Shown: positions 13,646 to 39,475 of the stretch, piece by piece
Layout of the letters: every line of letters begins with the position of its first letter
Position numbering within the stretch: position 1 is the first letter of the stretch
Assembly (NCBI GenBank): GCA_003009755.1
Contig: PXUB01000020.1
Coordinates: 1-41,538, forward strand
Direction of reading: 5' to 3'
DNA from: Thermoplasmatales archaeon SW_10_69_26
GTDB lineage: Archaea > Thermoplasmatota > SW-10-69-26
Length of the DNA stretch: 41,538 nt
The notes under the pieces: generated by a model
The model's database searches: none
What the model was told of the DNA's origin: nothing
The model's input: only the letters and a program-made list of their open reading frames with translations
Position numbers and translations under genes: made by a program

Positions 13646-13716
13646 TGCGGCCTCGCCGCGACCCAGGCGTAGGCGTGGACCGCCCCGACACCCAGCCCCG
13701 CAACCGCGGCCCTGAC

Positions 13717-13889
13717 AGCGGGCTGTCTCGTTAAGCAGGGGCCGCGAAGGACACGAAGGATCGCCAAGGCCACGAAGGGCCGGTGACTCGCCGCCGGGCG
13801 GCCTTGTCACAGCAGCTGCTCGCCGTTGTGCCCTGGCGTCCCGTCGCGTACTTGGTGGCCCCCCGCCCGTTTCATATCCTTACAGCGCG
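13717..13889 (+). mobile_element. Palindromic MITE-like element, copy 1
   Basis: About 173 bp, nearly identical to 26641-26806 and 39261-39428. It starts GGGCTGTCTCGTTAAG and ends in the imperfect inverse TATCCTTACAGCGCG. The two arms (each about 65 bases, rich in cgaagg/ccttgg motifs) pair imperfectly, and an inner hairpin (GTGAC...GTCAC around GCCGCC/GGCGGC) sits in the middle. Perfect 8-bp direct repeats GCCCTGAC flank it at 13709-13716 and 13890-13897. There is no coding capacity. It ends 64 bp before the start of the next gene. Confidence 0.85.
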
Positions 13890-13952
13890 GCCCTGACGGT
13901 GCGAAAAAGTTTTCCTATTGTGATTTCCTATCATATCAGAGGAGGCCATGGT

Positions 13953-16385
13953 ATGGCGAGGAGAGCAGTAGCGGTAGTCGCATGCGTATTGTTGATCGCC
14001 TCGGTCCTTCCGACGGCGCTGGGGAGGCACTTCAGCGTCGGGACGCGGGACTCGGTCGGAACCGAAGCGGTCGAGACACCGAACGAGAAGAGCGTCACCG
14101 ACGCCAATCACGCCACGGGCGTGAGCGAGGAATGCTACGAGCCGGATGGCAACCTGACCCAAGACCAAGCCCAACGCTCGCTAGAGACAGACCCGTTCTG
14201 TGGGAAACTGATCTACCAGAGCAACTTCCCCGAGCTGGAGCACTCCAGCTCCCGCGACCAGGACCTGCGGTCCACGTCCGAGCTCACGATCGGGCAGTTC
14301 GACGTCATCGCGACTAGCGTGATCGACGAAGACGAGGAGCCCTGCGCGCCCTTCTGCCGGGACCAGCCGGCTGAGACGGGCAATCTCACCTGGCAAGCCG
14401 TCCACGAGTTCGGATCTGATGCCGGACTGACCGAGGATCCCGATTCGGCGGACGAGCAGAACGAGGGCCCGCGCGACCAGTTCTACGGGGCCTCCATCCA
14501 CATCCCGAAGGCATCCTACGTCCTCCAGCAGAACACCGATGCCTGGCGGATGAACGGCTGGTGGTCGCCGGACGTCACGCACAACTACGTCGCGTACCTG
14601 TACGACAGCGAGGGCAACCCCATCGGTGACGACGACCTCCAGCAAGACGTCCCCAAGCTGCAGGAGAAGAGTGAGCTGTCCGACGCCGCCGAACCGCGCG
14701 TGTGCGGTTGGTCGGAGGACTTCGAGTTCACGTCGCTCAACTTCGAGGGCGCCAACTGCGAGATCCTGTTCGAGTACCGGGAGCCCGGGAACCGAGCTCC
14801 CGAGGACTCGGATTACGATGAGGGGTACAACGATCCGTGCAAGTCGCCGACGTGGGTCTGTGGCGGGTTCTCCGGCGGAGCCTGGTACTCGCAAGCGTAC
14901 TGCCTCAATTGCCAGGCCTCGCAGGTGACCGGCCCCAGCGAAGGCACCTTCCAGTTCATCGAATGGCACTGGCTGGTGGCGCCTGCCCCATCGGACTGCG
15001 GCGGCACCGTCCAACCCGGCGTTGCCTTCGAAACCGATGCCGAGAACCCGTACCTGGCGCACGATCTCGACGTCTGGACGCAGCCGACGGATCTCAAGAG
15101 CAGCGGGACGGCTCGCTCGACCGCGAACGCGGAGGACTTCGCCTGGGACAGCGCGAACGCCGAGGCCGACCGGGCTGTGGAGGGGGTCGTCGACCAGCTC
15201 CCGACCATCCCCAGCGGACCGGACAACCCCGTGAACAACGCGACGGACGTCGAGGTCCCCTCCCAAGTCAGCAAGGCAGACCGCGTGGAGCCGAACGCGG
15301 ACCCCGTCGCTGGGCTCGGCGACACCAGTCAGTCGTTGCCCGAGAGCGGCGGCACGCTCGACCGCAACCTGGAGAACGCTTGCCAGAACCTCAATAGCAA
15401 CGAGGAGCCCGACACGGTCGATCCGTGGGTCGACCTCGTCGACGGCGAGGTCGACTCCCCATCCGAGCAAGGTAGCGACAGCGTCGCGCTATACGCCAAC
15501 GGCGACGAGACGCAGGACAACGAGAACAAGCCCGGACCCAACCTCTTCCGGACCGAGGGCAACGTGGGCTTGTTCACCGACAAGAACGACGACGGCGACT
15601 ACGACACGCTGAGCGGGAACCCGACCGTGCTCAGCACCCGATCGCCAGCCTCGCTCTCGAGCGACAAGTACGACGACAACAACATCAAGACGACCGGGGC
15701 TTACCCGATGCTCTGGGACGTCTGGCTCACGGAGAACGACAACGGTCAGACCGTCGTGGACGAGACCGGCGGCTGCCAGCTGTCCGACACGGTCACGATC
15801 TCCGGAGAGGCCAAGGCCGCTGGCTACGGCCCCAACACGGGTCTCTTCCAGGTGGTCTACCTGAACGAACCGACCACCGTCGTCCGCTCTGACACGGGGG
15901 AGACGCGGTCCTATCCCGGCGGGGACAACATCTACCTGTTCATGAGCCAGAGCGCTCGGCAGCAGTACAACCCGGACGACAGCTCGGCGAACGCCCTCGA
16001 CACGGCGATCGAAGACGCCATCCGTGCACTGCGGCTCGACATGGCCGACGATGCCGAGATCCAGATCCCCGGGGAGGACCTCGGCCTGGACTCCGACTAC
16101 TTCGGGCAATGTAGCGAGGACACGGGTGGCTTCACGCTCGAGTTCTCGTTCACGCACGACTGCAGCCTGGACTGCTCCGGCGACACCATCGTGACCGGCT
16201 ACACGTTCGAGGTCGAGCGACTCGACGGTACCCTGGGCGGTCGCGACGCGAGCTCGATCCCGCTGTTCGAGGTCGACAACCAAGCCTACGACTTCGGTCA
16301 GGGCGCCCAGACCTGGACCGACGTGGACCCGTTCGACAACAACCCCGATCGACAGGACGACGAGGACGACAGCCCACCGACGTGA
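13953..16385 (+). CDS. Large secreted Cys-rich acidic protein of unknown function
   Basis: 810 residues. MARRAVAVVACVLLIASVLP is a signal peptide, probably cleaved near ALG-R. The mature protein is strongly acidic, Asn/Asp/Ser-rich and contains about twenty cysteines, often in pairs (EPCAPFC, QAYCLNCQ, HDCSLDC), suggesting disulfides outside the cell. A Pro/Asn-rich linker region (about 400-480) separates two beta-rich halves. No transmembrane anchor is seen. The start is ATG 13953 with GAGGAGG 7 bases upstream, after an AT-rich stretch (13905-13935) that holds the likely promoter. Its GC content is visibly lower than that of its neighbours. A surface-layer or exported binding protein is possible; I do not recognise a family. 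Confidence 0.8.
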   Translation: MARRAVAVVACVLLIASVLPTALGRHFSVGTRDSVGTEAVETPNEKSVTDANHATGVSEECYEPDGNLTQDQAQRSLETDPFCGKLIYQSNFPELEHSSSRDQDLRSTSELTIGQFDVIATSVIDEDEEPCAPFCRDQPAETGNLTWQAVHEFGSDAGLTEDPDSADEQNEGPRDQFYGASIHIPKASYVLQQNTDAWRMNGWWSPDVTHNYVAYLYDSEGNPIGDDDLQQDVPKLQEKSELSDAAEPRVCGWSEDFEFTSLNFEGANCEILFEYREPGNRAPEDSDYDEGYNDPCKSPTWVCGGFSGGAWYSQAYCLNCQASQVTGPSEGTFQFIEWHWLVAPAPSDCGGTVQPGVAFETDAENPYLAHDLDVWTQPTDLKSSGTARSTANAEDFAWDSANAEADRAVEGVVDQLPTIPSGPDNPVNNATDVEVPSQVSKADRVEPNADPVAGLGDTSQSLPESGGTLDRNLENACQNLNSNEEPDTVDPWVDLVDGEVDSPSEQGSDSVALYANGDETQDNENKPGPNLFRTEGNVGLFTDKNDDGDYDTLSGNPTVLSTRSPASLSSDKYDDNNIKTTGAYPMLWDVWLTENDNGQTVVDETGGCQLSDTVTISGEAKAAGYGPNTGLFQVVYLNEPTTVVRSDTGETRSYPGGDNIYLFMSQSARQQYNPDDSSANALDTAIEDAIRALRLDMADDAEIQIPGEDLGLDSDYFGQCSEDTGGFTLEFSFTHDCSLDCSGDTIVTGYTFEVERLDGTLGGRDASSIPLFEVDNQAYDFGQGAQTWTDVDPFDNNPDRQDDEDDSPPT

Positions 16386-16404
16386 TGGCCGTCCGCGGAT
16401 CGTA

Positions 16405-16446
16405 GGGCCCCACGGGCCCCTCCCCTCTTCTCCGTTCTCTTCTCGA
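16405..16446 (+). terminator. Hairpin plus pyrimidine tract after the large secreted gene
   Basis: A GGGCCC-CAC-GGGCCC stem-loop (16405-16419) followed by a T/C-only run to about 16445, 19 bases after the stop. Same design as the tuf terminator. Confidence 0.6.
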
Positions 16447-16766
16447 CCCCACAGCGGCGGCTGGGGACGGACACCCGCGCGCCTCCGGCTCAGCGCTCGA
16501 AACGGGTTGCCGAGCACGGTGCCGAAGGCGAGCACGGCCCTCCGGGGTCGAGGATGCCGGTCAACGGACCCGGGACGAGGTCGAGCCCGATCGACAGCAA
16601 GGGGCCGGACGGGCGTCGCTTCGAACACCTGGCTGCCGACGGAGCCCAGCCCGATGACGGCAGGCAAGCCGGCGAAAACCGTCGTCGGATCCAAGGCCAC
16701 GGCTGGTCGACGACGAAGCCGCGGAAACCCGCCGCGACCCTGCTCGGGCAGCCGGGGCTTCGGGTC
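16447..16766 (-). other. Intergenic region with a possible frameshifted small gene
   Basis: No intact gene. On the minus strand, 16600-16700 reads MALDPTTVFAGLPAVIGLG and a short continuation, about 16540-16598 reads LLSIGLDLVPGPLTGILDPG in a second frame, and 16500-16540 reads VLAFGTVLGNPFRAL in the first frame again. Joined, they look like one hydrophobic protein with two compensating frameshifts. In GC-rich DNA such readings also arise by chance. Confidence 0.25.
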
Positions 16767-17156
16767 CTAAGCGATCCCGAGGACCTCGCGGGCCTGATCC
16801 GCGTCGTCAACCTGGATCACGATCTCGGGCTCCTTGTTGGAGCCGTTGGCCGTGCCGTACATGTTCTCGATGTTGATCCCCTCCTTGGCCAGCCGCTCGA
16901 GCATGCCGTGGAGGGCACCCGGTTGGTTGGGCAGGCCCAGCGTCAGCACCTCGCCGGTGCGGATCTGGAAGCCGGCCTCCTCGAGGGCCTCCTCGGCCTC
17001 GTGGAGGGGATGAGCACGGATGCGGGCGAACCCGAAGTCGTGCTCGCCTTCGACCATGATCGACTCGATGTTCACGTCCTCGTCGGCCAGGACGGCGGTG
17101 ATCTCCGACAAGGCGCCCGGTTCGTTCTCGATGAAGACGGTGAGCTGTCGGCCCAT
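16767..17156 (-). CDS. Tandem ACT-domain protein
   Basis: 129 residues made of two ACT domains. The first (about 3-65) starts RQLTVFIENEPGALSEI, the second (about 68-129) has LGLPNQPGALHGMLERLAKE. ACT pairs bind amino acids and regulate enzymes or transcription; stand-alone tandem forms are frequent in archaea but their ligands are mostly unknown. The start is ATG 17154-17156; no ribosome-binding site precedes it. Divergent from msrA, about 160 bp apart. Confidence 0.88.
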   Translation of the reverse strand: MGRQLTVFIENEPGALSEITAVLADEDVNIESIMVEGEHDFGFARIRAHPLHEAEEALEEAGFQIRTGEVLTLGLPNQPGALHGMLERLAKEGINIENMYGTANGSNKEPEIVIQVDDADQAREVLGIA

Positions 17157-17283
17157 GGAAAACGCAACATCGAACGGTAGTTGCGCTTTGGCCTTGAACG
17201 CATCGGTGGTGGCCGCGTCTCGACCACCTCGTGCCCGGCGTCGGGACCTTCCCTCGGTCCCTACGTCAGGCCCTCGACCCGGA

Positions 17284-17290
17284 GTATAAG
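17284..17290 (+). promoter_or_regulatory. TATA box of msrA
   Basis: GTATAAG centred about 29 bases before the msrA ATG (17316), so the transcript is probably leaderless. It is one of the clearest promoters in the window. Confidence 0.65.
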
Positions 17291-17315
17291 GACGGGTAGG
17301 CACTCGTCGTCGCCG

Positions 17316-17849
17316 ATGGCGAAAGCTACGCTCGGCGGCGGCTGCTTCTGGTGCATCGAGGCTGCCCTCCAGCGGATCGAGGGCGTCGAGGAGGTCGTGC
17401 CCGGTTACGCCGGCGGCGAATCGGAGGATCCAACCTACCGCGAGGTGTGCGCGGGCGAGACCAGCCACGCCGAGGTCGTGCAGGTCACCTTCGACGGGGA
17501 CGAGCTCGGGTTCCGCGAGCTGCTGCACGTGTTCTTCTCGATCCACAACCCGACGACGAAGGACCGGGAAGGCAACGACGTGGGCTCGCAGTACCGCTCG
17601 ATCGTGCTCACGCACGACGACGATCAGCGATCGATCGTCGAGGACGTCATCGACGAGCTGGAGGAGGCCATCTACGACGACCCGATCGTGACCGAGGTCG
17701 AGCCCATAGAGACCTTCCACGTCGCCGAGGACGAGCACCAAGACTACTACGAGAAGAACCCCAGCCAGGGCTACTGCCGCGTCGTCATCGACCCCAAGAT
17801 CGAGAAGCTGCGCGCCCAGTGGAAGGACAAGATCGTCGAGGGCGCGTGA
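17316..17849 (+). CDS. msrA: Peptide-methionine (S)-S-oxide reductase MsrA
   Basis: 177 residues, full length. It reduces the S-epimer of methionine sulfoxide in proteins and free methionine. The catalytic motif GGGCFWCIE is at residues 7-15; the substrate pocket includes NDVGSQYRS; GYCRVVIDPK near the C-terminus supplies a recycling cysteine. The TATA box at the leaderless distance supports ATG 17316. No msrB is visible nearby. Confidence 0.97.
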   Translation: MAKATLGGGCFWCIEAALQRIEGVEEVVPGYAGGESEDPTYREVCAGETSHAEVVQVTFDGDELGFRELLHVFFSIHNPTTKDREGNDVGSQYRSIVLTHDDDQRSIVEDVIDELEEAIYDDPIVTEVEPIETFHVAEDEHQDYYEKNPSQGYCRVVIDPKIEKLRAQWKDKIVEGA

Positions 17850-17867
17850 GGGCGGACGAAGACGAGG

Positions 17868-18248
17868 TCACAGGCCCTCGACGGCGAGCCCGGGCACCAC
17901 CTCGAAACGCTCGTCGGACGAGAAGAGCACCTCGTCGTAGTGCAGCGCCGTCGTGGCGACTTGCAAGTCGTGCCATCCGAGGGTCCCCCCAGCCCTCATC
18001 AACTCGTGTTGGATGCGGGCGCTCTCGTCAGCCATTTGGCGGGTGAACGGCTCGAAGCCGACCGCTGCCTCCAGCGTCTCCCGAGCCTCATCGCGCTCTC
18101 GTGGTGGGAAACCCGAGAGGTACTCCGTCCAGACCGCCGCGGGAACCCTGACCGGCTCTCGACCGGCTTGGAGATCGAGGTATCTCTCCTCGGCCTTCCC
18201 CTTGCCTTGCTCGAGGGAGACGAGAAAGGTGGTATCGAGAACGGCCAT
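17868..18248 (-). CDS. PIN-domain RNase toxin (VapC-like), module 1
   Basis: 126 residues. PIN-domain acidic residues are visible in AVLDTTFLV (residue 5), VWTEYL (about 42) and GWHDLQVATTAL (about 93), with a late polar/acidic site in SSDERF. VapC toxins cut RNA, often tRNA or rRNA. The gene starts 2 bases after the antitoxin stop codon (18251-18253), so the two are co-transcribed and probably translationally coupled. The product is full length for the family. Confidence 0.88.
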   Translation of the reverse strand: MAVLDTTFLVSLEQGKGKAEERYLDLQAGREPVRVPAAVWTEYLSGFPPRERDEARETLEAAVGFEPFTRQMADESARIQHELMRAGGTLGWHDLQVATTALHYDEVLFSSDERFEVVPGLAVEGL

Positions 18249-18250
18249 CC

Positions 18251-18457
18251 TCAGGCCCCCGGACGATCGAGTCGATCGGCCTCGCGGATGTTCTCGCGGG
18301 CGTCCTCGATCTCCGAGGGTGAGCGCAGATCCTGGAGGTCCCTCAGATCCCCTCCCCCGAGCAGCCTCATGACCGTGTCGCTGTAGCTTTCTCCCGGACG
18401 TTTGGCGTTCGTGAGTCGCCGATACGCATCGTCCGAAAGCTGGACCATCCGAGTCAT
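18251..18457 (-). CDS. DUF217/VapB-type antitoxin, module 1
   Basis: 68 residues. The N-terminus VQLSDDAYRRLTNAKRPGES followed by YSDTVMRLL is the pattern of the archaeal DUF217 (VapB) antitoxins, with the DNA-binding part first and the toxin-binding helix last. ATG 18455-18457 is chosen because a TATA-like AATATAC lies 30 bases upstream; ATG at 18446-18448 or 18467-18469 are alternatives. Confidence 0.85.
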   Translation of the reverse strand: MTRMVQLSDDAYRRLTNAKRPGESYSDTVMRLLGGGDLRDLQDLRSPSEIEDARENIREADRLDRPGA

Positions 18458-18467
18458 TAGAGACAAC

Positions 18468-18484
18468 ATACGTTTACGCCGTAT
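18468..18484 (-). promoter_or_regulatory. Inverted repeat in the module 1 promoter, probable antitoxin operator
   Basis: ATACG-n7-CGTAT, perfect 5-bp arms, between the TATA-like sequence (about 18481-18488) and the antitoxin start, where a bound antitoxin would block transcription. The region is markedly AT-rich. Confidence 0.5.
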
Positions 18485-18603
18485 ATTGGTTTTATGCGTG
18501 GTGTGGAACGGGCGCGGCAGGTCTGCTGCGGTCCGCCGCCTGCCTCGGGCCCCTCTACCTTTCCTGCTCGTCGTTCGTCGCGGCTCCCGGAGGTCTGAGG
18601 GGC

Positions 18604-18981
18604 TCAGCCGTAGGTGATCGTCTCCTGGGCCGGGAAGTGGTGGGCGTTGCCCGTCACGATCGGGAGACCACCGCGGTTCTCGGCCACTCCTCCGATCAGC
18701 ACGTCGCTCCAACCCGGGAAGGTTCCCTCATCGAGCGTGCGCCCAGCGAGGGCGGCGGCCTCGCGGGCGTCCCCGGTTCGCAGCTCGACGACCTCACCGG
18801 CCCCTCGGAGCTGGTCGACGTCGCTTTGCGGATCCGAACAGCCGGCCAGGTACTCGGCGACCACGACCGTCGGGATGACGAGCAGCTCGTGGTCGGCCGC
18901 GAAGCGGTCGGCCAGGTCCCTGGCACCGTCGTTGCCTTTGGCGATGTCGACGAGGAAGGACGTGTCGACGACCACCGCCAT
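18604..18981 (-). CDS. PIN-domain RNase toxin (VapC-like), module 2
   Basis: 125 residues. AVVVDTSFLVDIAKG carries the first catalytic Asp, VVVAEYLAG the Glu, and WSDVLIGGVAENRGGLPIVT the third acidic site followed by NAHHF. The ATG follows the antitoxin TGA with no spacer (TGAATG). Only weakly similar to the module 1 toxin, so not a recent duplication. Confidence 0.88.
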   Translation of the reverse strand: MAVVVDTSFLVDIAKGNDGARDLADRFAADHELLVIPTVVVAEYLAGCSDPQSDVDQLRGAGEVVELRTGDAREAAALAGRTLDEGTFPGWSDVLIGGVAENRGGLPIVTGNAHHFPAQETITYG

Positions 18982-19218
18982 TCAATCGTCTCCCTGACCG
19001 AACAGCTCGTCCAGCTTGGCCCGATCGGAGGCTCGGCCGCGGGCCCGCAGTTCCTCGAGGTCGAAGTCCTCGCTAGGCTCGCTGAGTTCCAACAGCTTGC
19101 GGGGATCGCGTCGCTCGGCGGCGATCCGGATCACGGTGTCGCTGTAGGACTCGTCCTCGCGCTTGAGGGCCGTCAGTAGGCCGTAGGCGTCCTCGCTGAG
19201 GTGAACGGATCGCGCCAT
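18982..19218 (-). CDS. DUF217/VapB-type antitoxin, module 2
   Basis: 78 residues. ARSVHLSEDAYGLLTALKRE and ESYSDTVIRIA match the same family as the module 1 antitoxin; the C-terminal half is an acidic helix that should wrap around the toxin. The start is ATG 19216-19218, just downstream of two perfect inverted repeats. Confidence 0.85.
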   Translation of the reverse strand: MARSVHLSEDAYGLLTALKREDESYSDTVIRIAAERRDPRKLLELSEPSEDFDLEELRARGRASDRAKLDELFGQGDD

Positions 19219-19221
19219 TCT

Positions 19222-19256
19222 ACACACCTGTGGTGTGTGGAACATCTTGAATGTTC
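19222..19256 (-). promoter_or_regulatory. Two perfect palindromes in the module 2 promoter
   Basis: ACACACC-TGT-GGTGTGT (19222-19238) and GAACAT-CTTGA-ATGTTC (19240-19256) lie side by side immediately upstream of the antitoxin ATG. Two different palindromes suggest two binding sites, possibly for different regulators. Confidence 0.6.
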
Positions 19257-19403
19257 TGACGGATCGGGGACGAAACTGCGACTGTTGTTCTCGGCGCGAC
19301 GATCCGTCCTCCATCCCGCCGCCTCGACCGGCCTGTCGAAGAGCACGCCCTCCCGGGAGCCAACGCTCAAGTACGGGGGCCCGCTACCGGCGAGTTGCAC
19401 ATC

Positions 19404-22262
<2,859 letters not shown>

Positions 22263-22322
22263 CCGGTCCGCTGGGTTCGGTGGACGCTCGGCTGCCTCCT
22301 CGCGGGTCCAGGGTTGTCCTCG

Positions 22323-25185: not shown

Positions 25186-25935
25186 ATGGAGATCCTCGGG
25201 GCGAGCCAGCAGGCGGCCGAGCGCTGCCAGGCGTTGGACTTCGACGAGCCGGTCACCTGCACGTACAACCCGCTCGACTACGCCTGGGAGGGCTACCGCG
25301 CCTACCTCGAGCGCTTCGCGGACGAGCCCAAGGACGTGCTCATGGTCGGCATGAACCCCGGCCCGTGGGGGATGGGGCAGACCGGTGTCCCGTTCGGCGA
25401 CGTCGACCGCGTGCGCGAGGGCATGGGCATCGCCGACATCGAGGTCGACACGCCCGAGACCTACCTCGAGGACGAGCGACCCGTGCACGGGTTCGACTGC
25501 CCGCGCAACGAGCGCTCGGGGACGCGACTGTACGAGGGCCTGGCCGACCGCTTCGGCACGCTCGAGGACGCCTACGAGCACCTGTTCGTCGCCAACTACT
25601 GCCCGCTGTTGTTCTTCGACGACGAGGCCTCGAACATCACGCCGCCTCGGCTGCGGAAGGCCGACCGCGAGGCCCTGTTCGCCATCTGCGACGAACGCCT
25701 GTCGCGCTTGATCGACCACCTGGACCCGGACGCGCTCGTCGGCGTCGGCCGCTTCGCCGAGCGCCGGATCGAGGCCGTGCTCGCGGACCGCGGCGAGGAC
25801 CGGCAGGTCGAGTACCTGTTGCACCCGAGCCCGGCCAACCCGATGGCGAACAAGGACGGCGGCGAATACTGGCAGGCTCAGCTCGCCGAGACGCTGGAGG
25901 CGTGCGGGCTGGAAACCGAGGCGGTCGAGGCCTAG
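25186..25935 (+). CDS. SMUG1-type uracil-DNA glycosylase
   Basis: 249 residues. YNPLDYAWEGYRAYLERF, then VLMVGMNPGPWGMGQTGVPF (motif 1, about 52-71) and the C-terminal LLHPSPANPMAN (motif 2) are characteristic of single-strand-selective monofunctional uracil glycosylases. These remove uracil and some oxidised pyrimidines in base excision repair. NYCPLLFFDD in the middle supplies pocket residues. Length and motif order agree with SMUG1. The start is ATG 25186. It lies between uvrA and uvrC, giving a repair-rich neighbourhood. Confidence 0.92.
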   Translation: MEILGASQQAAERCQALDFDEPVTCTYNPLDYAWEGYRAYLERFADEPKDVLMVGMNPGPWGMGQTGVPFGDVDRVREGMGIADIEVDTPETYLEDERPVHGFDCPRNERSGTRLYEGLADRFGTLEDAYEHLFVANYCPLLFFDDEASNITPPRLRKADREALFAICDERLSRLIDHLDPDALVGVGRFAERRIEAVLADRGEDRQVEYLLHPSPANPMANKDGGEYWQAQLAETLEACGLETEAVEA

Positions 25936-26613: not shown

Positions 26614-26640
26614 CCGCCCTCCTCCGCCGCTCTCCCGCCC

Positions 26641-26806
26641 ACGGGCTGTCTCGTTAAGCAGGGGCCGCGAAGGACACGAAGGATCGCCACGGCCACGAAC
26701 CTGTGACTCGCCGCCGGGCGGCTTTGGCACGGCAGCTGCTCTCCTTTGTGCCCTGGCGTCCCGTCGCGTACTTGGTGGTCCCCCCGTTTGTTATCCTTAC
26801 AGCACG
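26641..26806 (+). mobile_element. Palindromic MITE-like element, copy 2
   Basis: About 166 bp, same orientation as the other copies. The flanking direct repeat TCCCGCCC is at 26633-26640 and 26807-26814; the match extends two further bases. It starts ACGGGCTGTC and ends TTACAGCACG. Its right end is 52 bp before the uvrC start, so its TTATCC motif (26791-26796) could serve as or replace the uvrC promoter. Confidence 0.85.
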
Positions 26807-26858
26807 TCCCGCCCACCCCGCAACCTTCTTGATGCCCAGGCCGGGATAGCTGTCCCAC

Positions 26859-28637
26859 GTGGTGTCGGATGAGCTGGTCGAGCGGGCTCGCGAGCTGCCG
26901 ACCGAGCCCGGCGTCTACCGGTTCGTGGACGCGGACGGCCAGGCCCTGTACATCGGGAAGGCCGCCGACCTGCGCGACCGGGTGACCAGCTACTTCACGG
27001 CGGGCACGCACGGGCACGGCCCCCGCATCGACCGGATGCTTGCGGAGGCCGAAGGGATCGAGACCGTGCTCGTCGACAGCGAGCAGGAGGCCTACCTGCT
27101 CGAGTCCAACCTGATCAAGGAGAAGAAGCCGCGCTACAACGTCCGCCTCACCGACGACAAGCGCTACCCGTGGATCCTGGTCTCCGACGAGGAGCACCCC
27201 CGGATCGACATCACGCGGGACAAGGCCGAGGAGGGCGACTACTACGGGCCGTTCCCCGACGTCGGGTCGGCGCGCGAGCTCGTGAACCTGCTGCGCGAAG
27301 CCTTCGGCGTCCGCGATTGCCCGCGCGAGCTGCCCGAGGGCTGCATCAAGCACGACATCGGCCTGTGCAAGGCGCCCTGCATGCTGGACATCGAGGAGAC
27401 CTACGCCGAGGCGGTCGAGCGCGTCCAGCACGTGTTGAAGGGCAACCCCCAGCCGGCGATCGCCGTGCTCGAGGAGCGCATGCACCAGGCCAGCGAGGAG
27501 CGGCGCTTCGAGCAGGCGGCCCGGCTGCGGGACGAGATCGAGGACATCCAGCGGTTGCTCGACGAGCAGGCGATCTTCGCCAGCGACCGCGAGGACCGGG
27601 ATGCCATCGCGATCGAGGGCACGCCCGAGCACGGGGTTGCGGTCGTGTTGCCGCGCCGCAGCGGGCGCGTGATCGACGCCCAGGACTTCCGCCTGCCAGG
27701 GTTCGAGGAGGCCGACCGCGCCGAGCTGTTGGCCGAGTTCCTGGCCCGCTACTACGAGGATCGGCCCTCGATCCCGCACCGGATCCTCGTGCCCGAGATG
27801 CCGACCGGTCACGAGGAGCTGGCCCAGGCCTTGGGCGCCCAGGCGGGGCGCAAGGTTCGCTTTCGGGTCCCCCAGCGCGGCAAGGGCAAGCGGATGCTGG
27901 ACCTGGCCGAGAAGAACGCCGGCTTCCAGCTCAAGCAGCTGCAGACCGAGCGCGGGCCCGACCCCGGCGTCGTCGACCTCAAACAGCGCCTGGCGCTGGC
28001 GGAGATGCCGCGCCGCATCGAGTGCGTGGACGTCAGCCACCACGGCGGCGAGGGCGTCGTGGCCGGCCTGGTCACCTTCGAGGACGGTCACGCCGACAAG
28101 TCCGGGTACCGGCGCTTCGATCTCTCGATCGAGAGCAACGACGACGTGGCCGGCATCCGGGAGGTCACCCGCCGCCGGTTGCGCCGGTTGACCGAGGAGG
28201 GCAAGGGCCTGCCGGACCTGTTCCTCGTCGACGGCGGCCGCGCCCAGGCCGACGCGGCGCGCGAGGCCGCCCGCGAGCTGGGGCTCGAGCTGGCGATCCT
28301 GGGCCTGGCCAAGGAGGAGGAAGCCGTGCACCGGCCGGGCTGGCGCGATCCCATCGATCTGCCCAACGAGGCGGCCGGGCTCAAGCTGTTGATGCGGGCA
28401 CGCGACGAGGCCCACCGCTTCGCGAACCAGTACAGCTCGACGAAGCGGACGAACACGCTCACGGACAGCGTGCTGGACGACGTGCCAGGGGTGGGCCCGG
28501 AGCTGCGGCGTCGGCTGCTGCGGGAGATGGGCAGCGTGGACGGGATCCGCGAGGCCACGGCCGAGGAGCTGACCGCCATCGACGGGGTCGGCCCCAAGCG
28601 GGCCCGGCGCATCAAGGCCACCCTGGGCGAGGGCTGA
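26859..28637 (+). CDS. uvrC: Excinuclease ABC subunit UvrC
   Basis: 592 residues, full length. It makes both incisions around a lesion after UvrB binding. The N-terminal GIY-YIG nuclease has PGVYRFVDADGQALYIGKA (about 17-36); a Cys cluster (IGLCKAPCML) follows; the UVR domain (about 200-232) contacts UvrB. The C-terminal RNase H-like nuclease begins IECVDVSHHGGEGVVAGLV and includes FLVDGGRAQ. Two helix-hairpin-helix motifs end the protein (DVPGVGPELRRRLL, IDGVGPKRARRI). The start is GTG 26859 or the adjacent GTG 26862. It sits directly downstream of MITE-like copy 2. Confidence 0.98.
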   Translation: MVSDELVERARELPTEPGVYRFVDADGQALYIGKAADLRDRVTSYFTAGTHGHGPRIDRMLAEAEGIETVLVDSEQEAYLLESNLIKEKKPRYNVRLTDDKRYPWILVSDEEHPRIDITRDKAEEGDYYGPFPDVGSARELVNLLREAFGVRDCPRELPEGCIKHDIGLCKAPCMLDIEETYAEAVERVQHVLKGNPQPAIAVLEERMHQASEERRFEQAARLRDEIEDIQRLLDEQAIFASDREDRDAIAIEGTPEHGVAVVLPRRSGRVIDAQDFRLPGFEEADRAELLAEFLARYYEDRPSIPHRILVPEMPTGHEELAQALGAQAGRKVRFRVPQRGKGKRMLDLAEKNAGFQLKQLQTERGPDPGVVDLKQRLALAEMPRRIECVDVSHHGGEGVVAGLVTFEDGHADKSGYRRFDLSIESNDDVAGIREVTRRRLRRLTEEGKGLPDLFLVDGGRAQADAAREAARELGLELAILGLAKEEEAVHRPGWRDPIDLPNEAAGLKLLMRARDEAHRFANQYSSTKRTNTLTDSVLDDVPGVGPELRRRLLREMGSVDGIREATAEELTAIDGVGPKRARRIKATLGEG

Positions 28638-31524: not shown

Positions 31525-31547
31525 CGCGAGGCAAGGCCTCGCACGGG

Positions 31548-31558: not shown

Positions 31559-31585
31559 TCTTGCGGACGAGGCGTTCGGTGGACG

Positions 31586-32053: not shown

Positions 32054-32248
32054 CGACCGGTTGCGCACTACCGAACGCGACGCCCAGCCCGGCGAGCCGC
32101 GATGTCGGCGGCGACCGCGACGACGATCGTCGCCAGCGGTGGAGGCGTGACGCGGAGGATGATGCACCCAGCCCCGAAGTATTTGTAGCGGGGGTGGGGG
32201 AGGTGGAGGAAGCGACCGAGCCCACGCTCGGCGCGAGAGGAAACCACC

Positions 32249-33022: not shown

Positions 33023-33270
33023 CGCGCGAGAGCCCAGCCCCCGAGCCGGTGGCCGGCACGGAGATGCCCCTGCGCCACGCCGGCACGTTCTTCGTGTTCT
33101 GCGTGGCCGGCGCGGTGATCGTCGCGTTGGTCACCGGTGATCCCTCGCTGCTGTGGGCCTACGTCGGCGCGTTCACGCTGACCGTGGCGATCGGGGTCGG
33201 GCTGGCGTTGCGCGCCGACCAACACAACCGATCGCTGGCCGCCCGCCGCTCACAGCCGCCGCTGCCGTAG
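33019..33270 (+). CDS. Small two-helix membrane protein
   Basis: 83 residues from GTG 33019. Hydrophobic helices at about 22-40 and 46-66 and a basic tail. Starts inside the stop of the preceding gene, so probably its partner in the membrane. No family recognised. Confidence 0.65.
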   Translation: MTRESPAPEPVAGTEMPLRHAGTFFVFCVAGAVIVALVTGDPSLLWAYVGAFTLTVAIGVGLALRADQHNRSLAARRSQPPLP

Positions 33271-33356
33271 GCGATCAATCGAGGCGCGTCGTGGTGGGTG
33301 ACCCCACGTTGCCATCAAGCAAGGACTTATGTAGCAGCCGCGAGCGTCTTCGGAGC

Positions 33357-33647
33357 GTGAGCGAGGCGGCGCTCGAGTCCCCTGGTCTGACGCCGAGCCC
33401 TCCGGAGGGGCTGCCCCCTTCGTCACAGGAGGTCTTCGAGCTGCTGGCGCTGGAAGGCCCCATGACGCACCGGGAGCTCGTCGAGCACACCGAGATGCCC
33501 GCCCGCACGGTCCGGTACGCCGTGCGGCGCCTGAAGGAGGCCGACTGTCTGGGGGAGCGCGTCAACCTCAAGGACTGCCGCCAGCGGTTCTTCTTCGTGA
33601 AACGCGAGGCGTCGGCCGAGGGCGGCTCGGCGCGGGCCGCGATCTGA
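33357..33647 (+). CDS. Winged helix-turn-helix transcriptional regulator
   Basis: 96 residues. SSQEVFELLALEGPMTHREL, then VEHTEMPARTVRYAVRRLKE is a helix-turn-helix with recognition helix, and CRQRFFFV forms the wing; MarR/TrmB-like small archaeal regulators look like this. GTG 33357 is chosen because ACTTATG (33325-33331) lies about 29 bases upstream, giving a leaderless mRNA; a longer reading would start upstream of that promoter. It converges on the SufS-like gene (3 bases apart). Target unknown. Confidence 0.82.
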   Translation: MSEAALESPGLTPSPPEGLPPSSQEVFELLALEGPMTHRELVEHTEMPARTVRYAVRRLKEADCLGERVNLKDCRQRFFFVKREASAEGGSARAAI

Positions 33648-33650
33648 GCC

Positions 33651-34859
33651 TCAGCCGGCGACGGCGGTGCGGATCTCCGCGAGCGTGTCGAGGATCGTCT
33701 CGACCTCGTGCATCGTGTTGTAGGCGTACAGCGAGGCCCGGCACGAGCCGCCGAGGCCGCGAGCGTTGAACCAGCTGTCGAGGCAGTGCAGGCCGGCGCG
33801 CACGCAGACGTCGGCCTCGTCCTCGAGCACGACGGCCAAATCGTGGATGTCCAACCCGTCCATCGCGAAGGACACGATGCCGTTGCCCTTGGCCTCCGGC
33901 GCGCCGTACACATCGCAGCCCAGCGCCTCGATGCCCTCCTGCAGACGCCGGGACAGCTTCTCCTCGTGGTCGCTGACCGCGGCCCGGTCCATCTCCTCGA
34001 GGTAGGTCAGCGCGGCGTGGGTGGCTTGGATGCCGGCGAAGTCCTGCAGCCCGGCCTCGAAGCGGCCCGGTGCATCCAGCAGCTCGTGGTCGGTCAACGT
34101 CGTCGATTCGATCGTGGCGCCGCCGGCGACGAGCGGGTCCATCTCGTCGAGGATCTCGGCCCGGCCCCACAGGACGCCGACGCCGGTGGGCCCCATCGCC
34201 TTGTGGACGCTGAACGCGAACAGATCGACGCCCAGCTCGGCGACGTCGACGGGGACGTGGGGGGCCGACTGGGCGCCGTCGGCGAGCACGAGCGCGTCGT
34301 GGTCGTGGGCGATCTCGGCGACGGCCTGCATCGGGGTGATGTAGCCGTCGAGGTTGCTCATGTGCACGAGGCTGACCAGGGAGACGTCGCCCTCCTCCAT
34401 GCGGGCCTTGTACGCCTCGAGGTCGAAGGCCCCCTGCTCGGTCGAGCCCACGGCCTCGTGGTGGACGCCCCCCTCGGCCAGTCGTTGGGCCGGGACCAGC
34501 CCGCTGTTGTGCTCGCGGTCGCTGGTGAGCACCGTGGAACCGGTGGGCAGGTCCAGGCCCTTCGCGGCGAGGTTCATCGCCTCCGTCGTGTTCCGGGTGA
34601 ACACGCACTCGTCGGCGCTGTCGGCGCCGAGGAAGGAGGCCACGGTCGCTCGCGAGCGCTGCACCGCCTCGTCGACCTCGCCGGCCAGGCGGTAGGTCGA
34701 GCGGCCGGCGCACACCGGCGTCTGCTCGTAGTAGCGGTTCAGCTCCTCGATCACCGGGTCGGGCTTGAGCGTCATGCAGGCGTTGTCGACGTAGATCGGC
34801 GGCTCGTCGTCCTGCAGCAGCGGGATGTCCTCGCGGACGTCGTGGGGATCGAAGCTCAC
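33651..34859 (-). CDS. SufS/CsdA-type cysteine desulfurase-like aminotransferase class V
   Basis: 402 residues. PLP-dependent class V fold: IYVDNACMTLKPDPVIEE, TRNTTEAMN, SDREHNSG, VLADGAQSAPH and the PLP-binding Lys in FSVHKAMGPTGVGVLWG. A Cys sits in VRAGLHCLDSWF at the place of the SufS persulfide-forming Cys, supporting sulfur transfer from cysteine for Fe-S or other sulfur compounds. The start is GTG 34857-34859 with GGAGG 8 bases upstream. No sufBCD neighbours are visible. A selenocysteine lyase or kynureninase-like activity is less likely. Confidence 0.87.
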   Translation of the reverse strand: MSFDPHDVREDIPLLQDDEPPIYVDNACMTLKPDPVIEELNRYYEQTPVCAGRSTYRLAGEVDEAVQRSRATVASFLGADSADECVFTRNTTEAMNLAAKGLDLPTGSTVLTSDREHNSGLVPAQRLAEGGVHHEAVGSTEQGAFDLEAYKARMEEGDVSLVSLVHMSNLDGYITPMQAVAEIAHDHDALVLADGAQSAPHVPVDVAELGVDLFAFSVHKAMGPTGVGVLWGRAEILDEMDPLVAGGATIESTTLTDHELLDAPGRFEAGLQDFAGIQATHAALTYLEEMDRAAVSDHEEKLSRRLQEGIEALGCDVYGAPEAKGNGIVSFAMDGLDIHDLAVVLEDEADVCVRAGLHCLDSWFNARGLGGSCRASLYAYNTMHEVETILDTLAEIRTAVAG

Positions 34860-34937
34860 CGTGGGTCCCTCCAGGCCCCAAGGGGCCAGAGCACACGCCG
34901 GTTAGCGCCGCGGGGCCTTCAACCTGCTGGCGGGGCC

Positions 34938-35225
34938 TCAGCTCTCGGCCAGCGCAGCGAGGATGGCGCGGGCCGCCTCCTCGGCCTCGCCCTGGTCGTC
35001 GGTCTTGGCCAGCAGGCGGCCGGATTCGAACACGGAGACCTCGCAGGGGCCGGGATCGACGACGAGCAGCACGCCCGCGTCGGTCACGATCTCCACGCCG
35101 GCGTCCGCCAGCCGCTGGCTCTCGGTGGAGAGATCGAGCTCGCGGGCGTCCTCCGGGGTGACCTCGTAGCCGCCCTTGCCCGAGCACAGTTCGACCGTGT
35201 GACCGGCCAGCGGGTCGGGGCCCAT
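34938..35225 (-). CDS. Small conserved-looking protein upstream of the SufS-like gene
   Basis: 95 residues. CSGKGGYEVTPEDARELDLS, then VEIVTDAGVLLVVDPGPCEV and SVFESGRLLAKTDDQGEAEE with a closing helix. The 'VFESGRLL.K..D..EAEEAARAIL' ending resembles short beta-beta-alpha segments in ThiF/HesA C-termini and TBP-like folds, but I assign no function. 78 bp separate it from the SufS-like gene on the same strand, so co-transcription is possible. The start is ATG 35223-35225. Confidence 0.65.
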   Translation of the reverse strand: MGPDPLAGHTVELCSGKGGYEVTPEDARELDLSTESQRLADAGVEIVTDAGVLLVVDPGPCEVSVFESGRLLAKTDDQGEAEEAARAILAALAES

Positions 35226-35673
35226 CGAAGTCGTCTGAGGAGGCCATGGGCCTTCAAGCTACGGGGAGGCCTCGACCCGCGGAGCGCGGGCTACTCCTCG
35301 AGCTCTCTCACTCGCGCCGGACGAAAGCGCGGATCCCTCGGCCTGCGATAACAGCGATCGTCTGGGGGGCTACGACGGACACTGCTGCCCCCCTTTTTGA
35401 TGAAAATTTCCTGGCCAACCGCTTGACGCGGATACCACGGAACCCGGAAATTTATCGAAGGAACGGGTTGCCCGGCGAGCGGGCCCCGACACGGGAGCGC
35501 TGGGGCTCGTAACCGGGGCTGTCGGCAGCGGCGGGCTCGCGCACGGCCTCGTCGAGATCGTTCACGCCGGGCATGGGTGGACTCCCCGTCCTCCCCCACC
35601 CCCTCAAGAACGGATATGGTACAGCCGTTCACCAGGAGTGGCGAACAGGCCACCTCAACGCTGAAGTACGCCC
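35226..35673. other. 448-bp intergenic region with an AT-rich island and a structured segment
   Basis: An unusually AT-rich stretch (about 35390-35460, with ttttttgatgaaaattt and aaatttatcg) is followed by a GC-rich segment whose ends pair perfectly over 9 bases (35469-35477 with 35565-35573). An inner stem (35486-35491 with 35520-35525) lies between them. AATTTATC (35449-35456) could be a plus-strand promoter about 25 bases ahead of the folded part. It is not a recognisable tRNA. The region ends with TCAACGCTGAAGTAC (35655-35669), the probable promoter of the following gene. Confidence 0.4.
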
Positions 35674-38082
35674 GTGGGTCTCCCTGGCGCGGGTGGCACA
35701 CTGAGGCGAGCCGTCACCGTCCTCCTGGCGCTCACGCTCGTGACCGTCCCGCAGGCGCTTGCCGGCACGTCCGGCGGCCAGGACGGTCCCGCCATCGACT
35801 GGTCCCCCGGGCCGGTCGTCCTCGCGAACGACGAGATCCGGTTCACGACCTCCGCCGACGCCGACGAGCTCGTGTGGCGGTTCCCGGACGGATCGCAGGC
35901 GACCGGGGCGAGCACGACGCACGCCTTCGACGAGCCGGGCGAGGCGACGGTCGAGCTCACGGCCGTGCGCGATGGCGAGCGGTCCACCACGAGGGCGACG
36001 GTGCCCGTGCAGGGCTCCTACCGCCAGGATCAGATCGTCAAGGAACAGGTCTTCGTCGAGACCTCGGGCCGGATGGACCTCGAGGCCGAGCACGCGGGCG
36101 AACAGCACGCGTCGACGAGCGACGCGGCCCCCGAGGACACCCCATTGGCGAACGACGACATCCTGATCGACGCCACGATCTACCACCCCGACCCGGACGT
36201 GGCCGAGGGCCCGTTCCCGGCGATGATGGCCACGCACGGCTGGGGTGGCCACAAGTCCCAGTACGAGGGCTACGGCGGCTCGTTCGCCGAGGAGGGCGTG
36301 GGCGCCTACGCGCAGGAGGGCTACGTCGGCGTCGTGTACAACACGCGCGGCACCGCGAACTCGACCGGCTACCAGCGGGCCTACGACCCCCAGCAGGAGA
36401 TGCAGGACGCCCGCGATGTCCTGACGTGGCTGGCCGACAACGACGCCCACGACGGCGACGTGTACTCCGGCCACGGGATGCGGTCGAACACGACCGTGGA
36501 CTTCGAGGTCGAGCTGGACGGTCCCGGCGACCCGCACGCGGGCATGTTCGGCCAGTCCAACGGCGGCATCACGACGCTGCTGCTCGCCGGCCAGGACGAC
36601 CGCCTGGACGCGGCCGCGCCCGGCGGTGTCTACCACAACCTCACGTTCTCGATGCTGCCCAACGGCGTGCCGAAGTCGGTGCTGATCGCCGGCATCGCCG
36701 CCGGCGCCGCTGCGAACGTCGGGGTCGAGCAGCTCCAGCGCGGCCACACCGAGGCGTTCGCGACGAACCCGGGTCTGTGGGGCACCGTCGACACCGAGAT
36801 CCCCAGTTGGATGGTGCAGGGCTTCACGGGCGCCGAGACCGACGTCCGCCAGGACTTCCGCGACCGGTCACCGATGACGTACAACGACGCCATCGACGTC
36901 CCCACGTTCCTCTCCCACGGCTGGATGGACCAGTTCTTCGAGCCGCCGAACCCGCTGCACAACTACCAGCAGATCGCCGAGAACCCCTACTTCTCGCAGT
37001 TGGAGGAGCCCGAGCGCGAGCGGCAGCTCAAGCTCGTGATGCAGCCGATGGGGCACGACTTCTACGAGCACAAGGTCCAGGACATGCGCGTGCCGTGGTT
37101 CGACCACTTCCTCAAGGGCCACGACCTCGACGACACCTACCACGGCGTCGTCGACCGCTACAACGGCGACAACCCCGAGGACGTGATCGACGAGCCCGCG
37201 GCCACGTACAGCCACGTCGTCGACCAGCCGCCGATCCTCTTCCACGAGGACCACCCCGACGACGAGCGCTGCGTCTCGATGGGCGTCCCCCAGGGCTGCA
37301 GCCACCCCGGCACCGAGTACGCCTGGTACGAGGAGGCCAGCCTCGAGGGCTGGATCGCCGACAGCCCCGACCACTGGCAGGACCCCTACACGGGCTTCCA
37401 CTACCGCGCCTACGACGACGCGATCTGGACACAGGACAGCCCCGAGCGGTTCCACCTGCGCGCCGACAACGGCCTCTCGCGGGAGGCCCCCAGCCAGTCG
37501 CTGCTCGCGCAACCCGACCGCGGCGACGTGATCGCCAACGTGCCCGGGCCCGGCTGGACGACGTGGAACCCGGCCAGCGACTTCCAGGGCACGCCCTGGG
37601 AGCAGCTCGACCACGCCCCCGCCGCCACCGTCAGCTACGAGAGCCCACCGCTGGCGGAGGATCTGACCGCGATCGGGCACGGCGAGGCCAACCTCGACGT
37701 CGTCGTCAGCGCCAACGGGCCGCTGGACTCCGGCACGGGCGACGTCCACTTCGTGGTGAAGGTCTGGGACGAGACCCCCGAGGGCGAGCGCGAGCTCGTG
37801 ACGCGCGGCTACCAGGCGATCGGGCTGGAAGACCGGATCGAGGATCCCAGCGCCGAGATCGCGCGCGAGGTCACGGTGCCGCTGTACTCGATGGATCGCG
37901 TGATCCCGGAGAACCACCGCCTCGTCGTCCAGGTCACGCACTCCGACATGACCTACGTCGCCCCCTCGCTCGTGCCGCACACGACGCTGATCCAGCACAC
38001 GCCCGAGAACCCCTCCTGGGTGGACCTGCCCACGCGGACCGACGCCGAGCTGGCGGAGGCCGCCTCGCCCGTCGCCGGGTGA
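35674..38082 (+). CDS. Secreted CocE/NonD-type hydrolase with N-terminal PKD-like domain
   Basis: 802 residues from GTG 35674. A CTG at 35701 would give a tidier signal peptide (RRAVTVLLALTLVTVPQALA) and better promoter spacing. A PKD-like beta domain (about 45-115; LVWRFPDGSQATGASTTHAF) precedes the alpha/beta-hydrolase core: MMATHGWGGHKSQYEGYGG, nucleophile elbow FGQSNGGI (about 294), Asp in SHGWMDQFF (about 415) and His in PMGHDFY (about 459). A CocE/PepX_C beta domain ends the protein. It is larger than the hydrolase at 29770-31524 and has no lipobox, so it is probably released. Substrate unknown: peptides or esters. Confidence 0.88.
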   Translation: MGLPGAGGTLRRAVTVLLALTLVTVPQALAGTSGGQDGPAIDWSPGPVVLANDEIRFTTSADADELVWRFPDGSQATGASTTHAFDEPGEATVELTAVRDGERSTTRATVPVQGSYRQDQIVKEQVFVETSGRMDLEAEHAGEQHASTSDAAPEDTPLANDDILIDATIYHPDPDVAEGPFPAMMATHGWGGHKSQYEGYGGSFAEEGVGAYAQEGYVGVVYNTRGTANSTGYQRAYDPQQEMQDARDVLTWLADNDAHDGDVYSGHGMRSNTTVDFEVELDGPGDPHAGMFGQSNGGITTLLLAGQDDRLDAAAPGGVYHNLTFSMLPNGVPKSVLIAGIAAGAAANVGVEQLQRGHTEAFATNPGLWGTVDTEIPSWMVQGFTGAETDVRQDFRDRSPMTYNDAIDVPTFLSHGWMDQFFEPPNPLHNYQQIAENPYFSQLEEPERERQLKLVMQPMGHDFYEHKVQDMRVPWFDHFLKGHDLDDTYHGVVDRYNGDNPEDVIDEPAATYSHVVDQPPILFHEDHPDDERCVSMGVPQGCSHPGTEYAWYEEASLEGWIADSPDHWQDPYTGFHYRAYDDAIWTQDSPERFHLRADNGLSREAPSQSLLAQPDRGDVIANVPGPGWTTWNPASDFQGTPWEQLDHAPAATVSYESPPLAEDLTAIGHGEANLDVVVSANGPLDSGTGDVHFVVKVWDETPEGERELVTRGYQAIGLEDRIEDPSAEIAREVTVPLYSMDRVIPENHRLVVQVTHSDMTYVAPSLVPHTTLIQHTPENPSWVDLPTRTDAELAEAASPVAG

Positions 38083-38121
38083 CCCCAAGCCTCAGGCGCG
38101 TGGGTGGCCTACCCCGATGCG

Positions 38122-39258
38122 ATGCGCCGCCCGCTCGCGTTCCTGCTTCTCCTCGTCGTCGTGGCCGGCTGCACCCAGGCTCCGCCGCCGACCGACGGGG
38201 ATCTGCCTCGCGTGGACGAGGCCGACCCGGACGAGATCGCCATCCTCGCTGGGGACCGCGACACGATCTGGGAGCTGGCCTTCGCGCCGGACGGGCGGGT
38301 GTTCTTCACCGAGCGCGGCGGCACGATCGGCGTGATCGCGAACGGCGAGGCGGAGACCTGGCGCGAGATGCCCCAGACCGTCGAGCGCGGCGAGTCGGGC
38401 CTGATGGGGCTGGCCTTGCATCCCGACTTCGAGGACGAGCCGTGGCTGTACGTCTGCCAGACGTACCGAGACGGAGACGACGCCTTGCGCAACCGCGTCG
38501 CCCGCGTCCCGGCCGACGACCGCGAGGCCGTCCCCGAGCCCGTCGTGCGCGGCATCGACGCCAGCCAGATCCACGACGGCTGCCGGCTCGGGTTCGGGCC
38601 CGAGGGGCTGTTGTACGTCACGATGGGCGACGCCGCCGACGCCTCGCGCGCCCAGGACGAGGGCAGCCGCAACGGCAAGGTGCTGGCCTACACCGCCGAG
38701 GGCGAGCCAGCCGGCGCCGGCGAGGAGGGCTGGCATCCGGCCGTGTTCACGATGGGCCACCGGAACCCGCAGGGCCTGGTCTTCCACCCCGACACGGGCA
38801 CGCCCTACGCGAGCGAGCACGGGCCCGAGAACCACGACGAGGTCAACCGGCTCCGCGAGGGCGCCAACCACGGCTGGCCCGAGGTCCGCGGCATGGACGA
38901 GGGCGGGGGCGCCTACGAGCCGGCGGTCTGGACCACGGGGCCCGACGCCGACGAGAACGTCGCCCCGGCCGGGGCCGCCTTCGTCGACCAGCCCAACAGC
39001 TCGCTGCACGGGGCCCTGCTCGTGGCGACGTTGAAACAGGCCCAGCTGCAGGTCCTCGAGATCGACGAGGCGGACGGCGAGGCCGAGGTGGTCGACGAGC
39101 ACGTGCTCTTCGACGAGCGCTTCGGTCGGCTGCGCGCCGCCGTCTGGGAAGACGATGCGCTGTACGTGTCGACGAGCAACCACGACGGGCGCGGCACGCC
39201 TGGGCCGACCGACGATCGGATCTTGCGCATCCCGTTGCCCGCGATCGAGGACGGGTAG
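38122..39258 (+). CDS. PQQ-type sugar (glucose/sorbosone) dehydrogenase-like lipoprotein
   Basis: 378 residues. PLAFLLLLVVVAGCTQ has a lipobox Cys at residue 17. The six-bladed GSDH propeller follows: LAFAPDGRVFFTERGGTIGV, GLMGLALHPDFEDEPWLYV, GCRLGFGPEGLLYVTMGDAA, GHRNPQGLVFHPDTG, ASEHGPENHDEVNRL and NHGWPEV. These match Asd/Yli-type aldose or sorbosone dehydrogenases that use PQQ outside the cell. ATG 38122 is preferred over GTG 38104. It starts 39 bp after the hydrolase, so the two may be one transcript for extracellular degradation. Its stop codon lies in the target repeat of MITE-like copy 3. Confidence 0.9.
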   Translation: MRRPLAFLLLLVVVAGCTQAPPPTDGDLPRVDEADPDEIAILAGDRDTIWELAFAPDGRVFFTERGGTIGVIANGEAETWREMPQTVERGESGLMGLALHPDFEDEPWLYVCQTYRDGDDALRNRVARVPADDREAVPEPVVRGIDASQIHDGCRLGFGPEGLLYVTMGDAADASRAQDEGSRNGKVLAYTAEGEPAGAGEEGWHPAVFTMGHRNPQGLVFHPDTGTPYASEHGPENHDEVNRLREGANHGWPEVRGMDEGGGAYEPAVWTTGPDADENVAPAGAAFVDQPNSSLHGALLVATLKQAQLQVLEIDEADGEAEVVDEHVLFDERFGRLRAAVWEDDALYVSTSNHDGRGTPGPTDDRILRIPLPAIEDG

Positions 39259-39260
39259 CC

Positions 39261-39428
39261 CGGGCTGTCTGGTTAAGCAGGGGCCGCGAGGGACACGAAG
39301 GATCGCCAAGGCCACGAAGGGCCTGTGACTCGCCGCCGGGCGGCTCTGTCACGGCAGCTGCTCCCCTTTGCACCCTGGCGTCCCCTCGCGTCCTTGGTGG
39401 TCCCCCCGTTTCTTATCCCTGCAGCGCG
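39261..39428 (+). mobile_element. Palindromic MITE-like element, copy 3
   Basis: 168 bp, starting CGGGCTGTCTGGTTAAG and ending TATCCCTGCAGCGCG. Flanking repeats GGGTAGCC are at 39253-39260 and 39429-39436. The left repeat includes the TAG stop of the sugar dehydrogenase gene, so insertion took place at the stop codon and the duplication preserved it. The right end is 47 bp from the thioesterase start. Confidence 0.85.
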
Positions 39429-39475
39429 GGGTAGCCGGCAGGCAAGCCTTTCCGGGCGACCGGGCTAGGCCATCC

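What the first reader, a model, noticed from the sequence alone, without database searches (positions are those of the whole stretch)
13709..39436. A three-copy palindromic MITE-like element with perfect 8-bp target duplications
Three near-identical non-coding units of about 165-173 bp (13717-13889, 26641-26806, 39261-39428) each sit between perfect but different 8-bp direct repeats: GCCCTGAC, TCCCGCCC and GGGTAGCC. The ends are imperfect inverted repeats (CGGGCTGT...TTAAG against CTTATCC...ACAGCGCG). The arms pair imperfectly along their length around an inner GTGAC/GTCAC hairpin, so the unit folds into a long cruciform. Different duplications at each copy show real insertions, not segmental duplication. 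No transposase is in the window. An 8-bp duplication is compatible with several DDE-transposase families, so the driver is unknown. I know of no described archaeal MITE with this sequence.
Basis: seen in the sequence. Interest (0 to 1): 0.88.

Follow-up and report, generated by a model that had tools for sequence, protein, structure and literature searches.

The report
Archaeal mini-transposon moved by IS6-type transposase
About 47 near-identical, gene-less jumping elements of about 168 bases are scattered through the genome of a Thermoplasmata-related archaeon; most made their own short duplication where they landed, and their ends match those of an IS6-type transposon in the same genome, which most likely moves them.

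Summary
In detail: three near-identical palindromic units with different flanking duplications. I located 47 copies in the window's own genome (2.8 Mb archaeal draft; nearest EF-1A is a Thermoplasmata MAG) and none in 60 relatives. Of 35 two-ended single copies, 28 carry their own duplication in one common frame (20 perfect, 8 with one mismatch); three more do in a slightly shifted frame, including window copies 1 and 3. The duplication is usually 9 bp, not 8: left/right flank identity is far above chance at exactly nine positions. Two further copies carry each other's duplications, a sign of recombination between copies (or a misassembly).

A whole-genome search for the left end gave 45 hits: MITE copies plus exactly three others, each at an end of an ~800-bp IS encoding an archaeal IS6-type DDE transposase. 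These ends also resemble haloarchaeal ISHme1. The genome's IS1595 elements have different ends. Best reading: a MITE moved in trans by this IS6-like transposase; its interior does not resemble the IS. Mobilisation itself is untested. ISfinder's IS6 family already lists two MITEs (MITEBth2, MITEHarch3), so this is a new member of a known kind.

The parts
13709..13716 (.). Copy 1, left target duplication GCCCTGAC (9-bp reading GGCCCTGAC, 13708-13716)
13717..13889 (+). MITE copy 1, just upstream of the gene starting near 13949
13719..13736 (+). Copy 1 left terminal repeat CGGGCTGTCTCGTTAAGC
13869..13889 (+). Copy 1 right terminal repeat GTTTCATATCCTTACAGCGCG
13890..13897 (.). Copy 1, right target duplication GCCCTGAC
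26633..26641 (.). Copy 2, left target duplication TCCCGCCCA (9 bp)
26642..26806 (+). MITE copy 2, between a PIN-domain gene (ends 26613) and uvrC
26807..26815 (.). Copy 2, right target duplication TCCCGCCCA
39253..39260 (.). Copy 3, left target duplication GGGTAGCC; contains the TAG stop of the glucose/sorbosone dehydrogenase gene 38104-39258
39261..39428 (+). MITE copy 3
39429..39436 (.). Copy 3, right target duplication GGGTAGCC

Best explanation
The units are copies of one family of non-autonomous DNA transposon (a MITE) of about 168 bp. A DDE transposase of the archaeal IS6 type, encoded by an ~800-bp IS elsewhere in the same genome (the C38 copy has both ends and an open frame; the C36 copy is open but lacks its left end), recognises the CGGGCTGTCTSGTTAAGC ... 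CTTATCCTTACAGCGCG ends and inserts the element at GC-rich sites through a 9-bp (sometimes 8-bp) staggered cut, which is repaired into the flanking direct repeats. Shown: copy number, ends, duplications, and co-occurrence of the IS with matching ends. Inferred: that this transposase does the moving. The internal palindrome is a property of the ancestral element and shows no sign of being maintained after insertion.
For: 47 copies in the own genome, about 96% identical to consensus and 93% to each other. Of 35 two-ended monomers, 20 have perfect 9-bp duplications in frame and 8 have one mismatch; flank identity is 28-33 of 35 at positions 1-9 and at chance level on both sides. The left end occurs 45 times genome-wide within 3 mismatches, with 0 in the reversed-pattern control; the only three that are not MITE copies or MITE stubs (C36, C38, C41) are all ends of the same IS. 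Its protein hits NCBIfam IS6 (E 1e-23), keeps the DDE residues and carries the archaeal IS6 signatures E--F---K-R and W---F (PMC6807381). Haloarchaeal ISHme1 has ends GGCACTGTCTAGTTA. Archaeal IS6 elements mostly duplicate 8 or 9 bp (Table 5 of PMC6807381). Among 41 genomes searched, close copies of the transposase (71-100% identical pieces) occur only in the one genome that has the MITE.
Against: The IS6 model score (84 bits) is below NCBI's cut-off (125), and Pfam's IS240 domain does not ring. None of the five IS copies has a target duplication of its own, and only C38 has both ends and an open frame. Similarity between MITE and IS is limited to about 20 bp at the left end and about 13 of 15 at the right; the interior is unrelated. 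IS26 makes cointegrates (PMC6807381, PMC7986276), whereas nearly all copies here look like simple insertions.
Confidence: 0.8

Rival explanations
1. The MITE is driven by an IS1595-family transposase; this family also makes 8-9 bp duplications and is another intact-looking IS group in the genome.
For: Several IS1595-type transposase genes lie in the genome. Their ISs have 8-bp (CTCGCGAG, CTCCCGTA) or 9-bp (TTCGACGTT) duplications.
Against: Their ends are GGTGCTGAACGGGACCTCTCAATA or AGTGCTTCTCGGGGTGTCTCAGTA, without the CTGTCTxGTTAAGC core. No MITE-end match within 3 mismatches lies at an IS1595.
Confidence: 0.06
2. The driver is another transposase that was lost, is in the unassembled ~5%, or lies on an element not binned with this draft; the IS6-like ends resemble the MITE only because both descend from an older relative.
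For: The draft is 95% complete in 49 contigs; the IS copies are few, lack duplications and are mostly damaged; similarity is limited to the ends.
Against: The IS in hand has the best matching ends in 2.8 Mb, and one copy keeps both ends, an open frame and the DDE residues.
Confidence: 0.12
3. A structured RNA or regulatory repeat kept for its hairpin, not a transposon.
For: Strong whole-length hairpin.
Against: Clear target duplications; no excess of compensatory changes, with paired and unpaired positions varying alike (4.4% against 3.8%; 4 both-side changes against 131 broken pair cells); no Rfam hit.
Confidence: 0.02

Closest known systems
MITEHarch3 and MITEBth2, the two MITEs listed in ISfinder's IS6 family (PMC6807381; 227 and 336 bp per PMC7986276)
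   Same: Non-autonomous elements with IS6-type ends and no gene; MITEHarch3 is archaeal by its name.
   Different: Those are longer. Their sequences are not held here, so no direct comparison was made. This one is about 168 bp, palindromic along its whole length, with 47 copies in one genome.
Archaeal IS6-family insertion sequences (ISHme1, ISH29)
   Same: End core CTGTCTAGTTA (ISHme1), 8- or 9-bp duplications, transposase signatures shared with the IS found here.
   Different: They encode a transposase; the MITE does not, and its interior is unrelated to the IS of its own genome.
IS1595-family insertion sequences of the same genome
   Same: 8- or 9-bp duplications.
   Different: Different terminal repeats.

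Membership tests
MITE | Short, no transposase gene | tested here: met
   Consensus 168 bp, no gene
MITE | Terminal inverted repeats | tested here: met
   CSGGCTGTCTSGTTAAG against CGCGCTGTAAGGATAAG; imperfect
MITE | Multiple dispersed copies with separate target duplications | tested here: met
   47 copies; 31 of 35 two-ended monomers with matching duplications, counting shifted frames
MITE | Autonomous partner with matching ends | tested here: met
   IS6-type IS at C38, C41, C36; match limited to the ends
MITE | Empty sites in close relatives | not testable with these tools
   No other genome of the genus held; nearest has UvrC at 66%
IS6 (archaeal branch), for the proposed driver | Family model score above the curated cut-off | tested here: not met
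   NF033587 E 1e-23 but 84 of 125 bits; PF13610 silent. Hence called IS6-type or IS6-like, not filed as a full member
IS6 (archaeal branch), for the proposed driver | DDE transposase with E--F---K-R and C-terminal W---F signature | tested here: met
   VETWFGLLKER and W---F in both open copies; D109 and E212 invariant in the 7-sequence alignment (signature from PMC6807381)
IS6 (archaeal branch), for the proposed driver | IS length about 700-890 bp with one transposase gene | tested here: met
   About 800 bp, single ORF
IS6 (archaeal branch), for the proposed driver | 8- or 9-bp duplication at the IS itself | tested here: not met
   None of the IS copies shows one; only C38 and C41 keep both ends
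IS1595 as driver | Matching terminal repeats | tested here: not met

The most novel reading that the evidence does not exclude
The IS6-type transposase makes simple, cleanly duplicated insertions of a ~168-bp element (copy-out/paste-in or cut-and-paste) instead of the cointegrates described for IS26. About 31 of 35 copies sit between matched duplications, although 168 bp is a short homology for a host to resolve cointegrates by recombination.
Probability: 0.25. Interest if true: 0.45.

Novelty: new member of a known kind. Interest (0 to 1): 0.3.

Why it matters
It names a likely driver for an otherwise orphan MITE in an uncultured archaeal lineage and adds a high-copy example to a poorly populated group (two MITEs listed for IS6 in ISfinder). 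Because dozens of copies keep clean duplications, the family offers a natural record of what an archaeal IS6-type transposase does: duplication length, target preference, and simple insertion against cointegrate.

Tried and rejected
IS1595 as driver: the genome has several, but their ends differ. Pfam IS240 search of the own genome: no match, so the driver was found through its ends instead. Matches in relatives G006 and G011 are short chance matches without a MITE around them. Plasmid and viral collections: no MITE. Selected RNA structure: no compensatory signal, no Rfam hit. A larger unit around the right-only copies: no upstream duplication or second end found. Replicative sister origin of the pair with swapped duplications: the two copies are not each other's closest relatives (ranks 17 and 3 of 35), so crossing-over between resident copies is preferred, or a misjoin in the draft. 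Empty sites in relatives: nearest held genome too distant. A crude ORF-based look at insertion contexts put about two thirds of copies between genes, but the ORF caller is unreliable at this GC content and nothing is built on it.

Full report
OBSERVATION. Copies 2 and 3 are 90% and 89% identical to copy 1. The consensus folds into one long interrupted hairpin. No Rfam family matches.

HOST. The window is one 41.5-kb contig (C20) of a 2.8-Mb draft in 49 contigs. Its EF-1A is closest, at 80%, to a Thermoplasmata archaeon MAG (CSSed11_322R1); the next hits are haloarchaea at up to 68%. That the host is a Thermoplasmata relative is inferred from this one marker.

FAMILY. The first search returned 41 matches; adding searches for each end brought the total to 47 copies, of which 35 are two-ended monomers. 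Mean identity is 96% to consensus and 93% between pairs, as expected for many copies from a narrow source. One copy (C25:13410) is an internally deleted 143-bp form that still has a perfect 9-bp duplication. No copy was found in 60 relatives, including the one held genome of the same family, in plasmids or, by exact pattern, in viral contigs.

DUPLICATIONS. With all copies set in the frame [9 bp]-2 nt-GGCTGT ... ACAGC-3 nt-[9 bp], left and right flanks agree in 28-33 of 35 copies at each of nine positions and only at shuffled levels immediately outside. Twenty copies are perfect and eight have one mismatch; in shuffled pairs at most one mismatch occurs in about 0.3%. Window copies 1 and 3 and C29:18734 have matching duplications in a slightly shifted frame. 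Copies C29:70403 and C38:104297 carry each other's duplications (GCCCACCGG and CCTCCCGGC, both 9 of 9), the mark of reciprocal recombination between two copies, of a replicative rearrangement, or of an assembly misjoin. C16:9232 and C29:53517 have none. A partial dimer at C6:21089-21387 lies as one unit inside a single 9-bp duplication (GGGTTCCCC); nested insertion followed by recombination between the direct repeats would give this.

DRIVER. The left end (19 nt, up to 3 mismatches) occurs 45 times in the genome, with none in the reversed control. All are MITE copies or truncated MITE ends except C36, C38 and C41, and each of these is an end of an ~800-bp IS. Left ends: CGGGCTGTCTAGTTAAGCGCGG (C41) and CGGACTGTCTAGTTAAGCGGGG (C38), against MITE CGGGCTGTCTSGTTAAGCAGGGG. 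Right ends: CGCTTAACCTGACAGC (C36) against MITE TTATCCTTACAGC. The encoded protein is best matched by NCBIfam's IS6 model (E 1e-23, below its cut-off), aligns with haloarchaeal IS6 transposases including ISH29 and ISHme1, and keeps the catalytic residues and the E--F---K-R and W---F signatures that PMC6807381 gives for archaeal IS6 elements. ISHme1's own ends, GGCACTGTCTAGTTAGGC and GGCACTGTCTAGTTAACC, share the CTGTCTAGTTA core. The C38 copy has both ends and an open frame; C36 lacks its left end; C41 is frameshifted; two pieces at C37 are truncated. None has its own duplication. In the genomes searched, close homologues of this transposase occur only in the genome that holds the MITE; others are at most 40% identical.

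MECHANISM. Most likely the IS6-like transposase acts in trans on the MITE ends and inserts by a 9-bp stagger into GC-rich sites (duplications 82% GC against 69% for the window). The ends and duplications are shown; mobilisation in trans is inferred. The MITE interior is unrelated to the IS, so it is not a plain internal deletion of this IS. The hairpin is not conserved by selection after insertion.

COMPARISON. PMC6807381 and PMC7986276 record 8-bp duplications as typical for the IS6 family and two MITEs (MITEBth2, MITEHarch3) in ISfinder. Whether archaeal elements belong in IS6 at all is disputed in PMC6807381, so 'IS6-type' here means the archaeal branch as currently listed. No paper in the library pairs Thermoplasmata with miniature inverted-repeat elements, which is an absence from an open-access library, not proof of priority.

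WHAT IS NOT EXPLAINED. Four right-only copies (C8:18806, C19:31769, C35:21773, C23:40440) begin at or next to the same internal point, GGGGCC|GCGAAGG, and a left-only copy (C42:10146) ends there. C35's copy is 100% identical to the consensus over its length, so this breakage looks recent, but no duplication or second end was found.

VERDICT. A genuine, previously undescribed (as far as could be checked), genome-restricted MITE family with a likely driver identified: a new member of a known kind.

Noticed in passing
window 13289-13642 and 1-112; L041:17082-17182; L045:1028-1340: A second, unrelated dispersed repeat family with inverted ends TAG[AC]CTGCCGG ... CCGGCAG[TG]CTA and a modular, mosaic interior; 43 matching places in the own genome, none in 12 relatives; several contigs begin in it. 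A stem (GTAGCC-TCC-GGCTAC against ATGCCC-TCC-GGGCAT) changes on both sides. The window copy starts at the uvrB stop codon and ends 75 bp before MITE copy 1.
   Followed up: partly
G000 C8:18806, C19:31769, C35:21773, C23:40440, C42:10146 (L213, L060, L059, L214, L211): Recurrent break of the MITE at the inner edge of its left end (GGGGCC|GCGAAGG): four right-only copies begin there and one left-only copy ends there.
   Followed up: partly
G000 C29:70403-70573 and C38:104297-104463: Two MITE copies with exchanged 9-bp duplications, suggesting a rearrangement between copies or an assembly misjoin.
   Followed up: yes
G000 C6:21089-21387 (L028): A partial MITE dimer, first copy lacking its right end and abutting a full second copy, inside a single 9-bp duplication.
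   Followed up: partly
L061:1037-2064, L062:1039-2064, L064:1145-2188: IS1595-type insertion sequences with clear terminal repeats and 8- or 9-bp duplications in the same genome.
   Followed up: yes
window 25615-25691 (-): ARAGORN calls a tRNA with a four-base anticodon (tccg) inside the uracil-DNA glycosylase ORF; probably spurious.
   Followed up: no
window 11267-13291, 19395-22262, 26859-28637: uvrB, uvrA and uvrC, bacterial-type excision repair genes, lie within about 17.4 kb in this archaeon.
   Followed up: no
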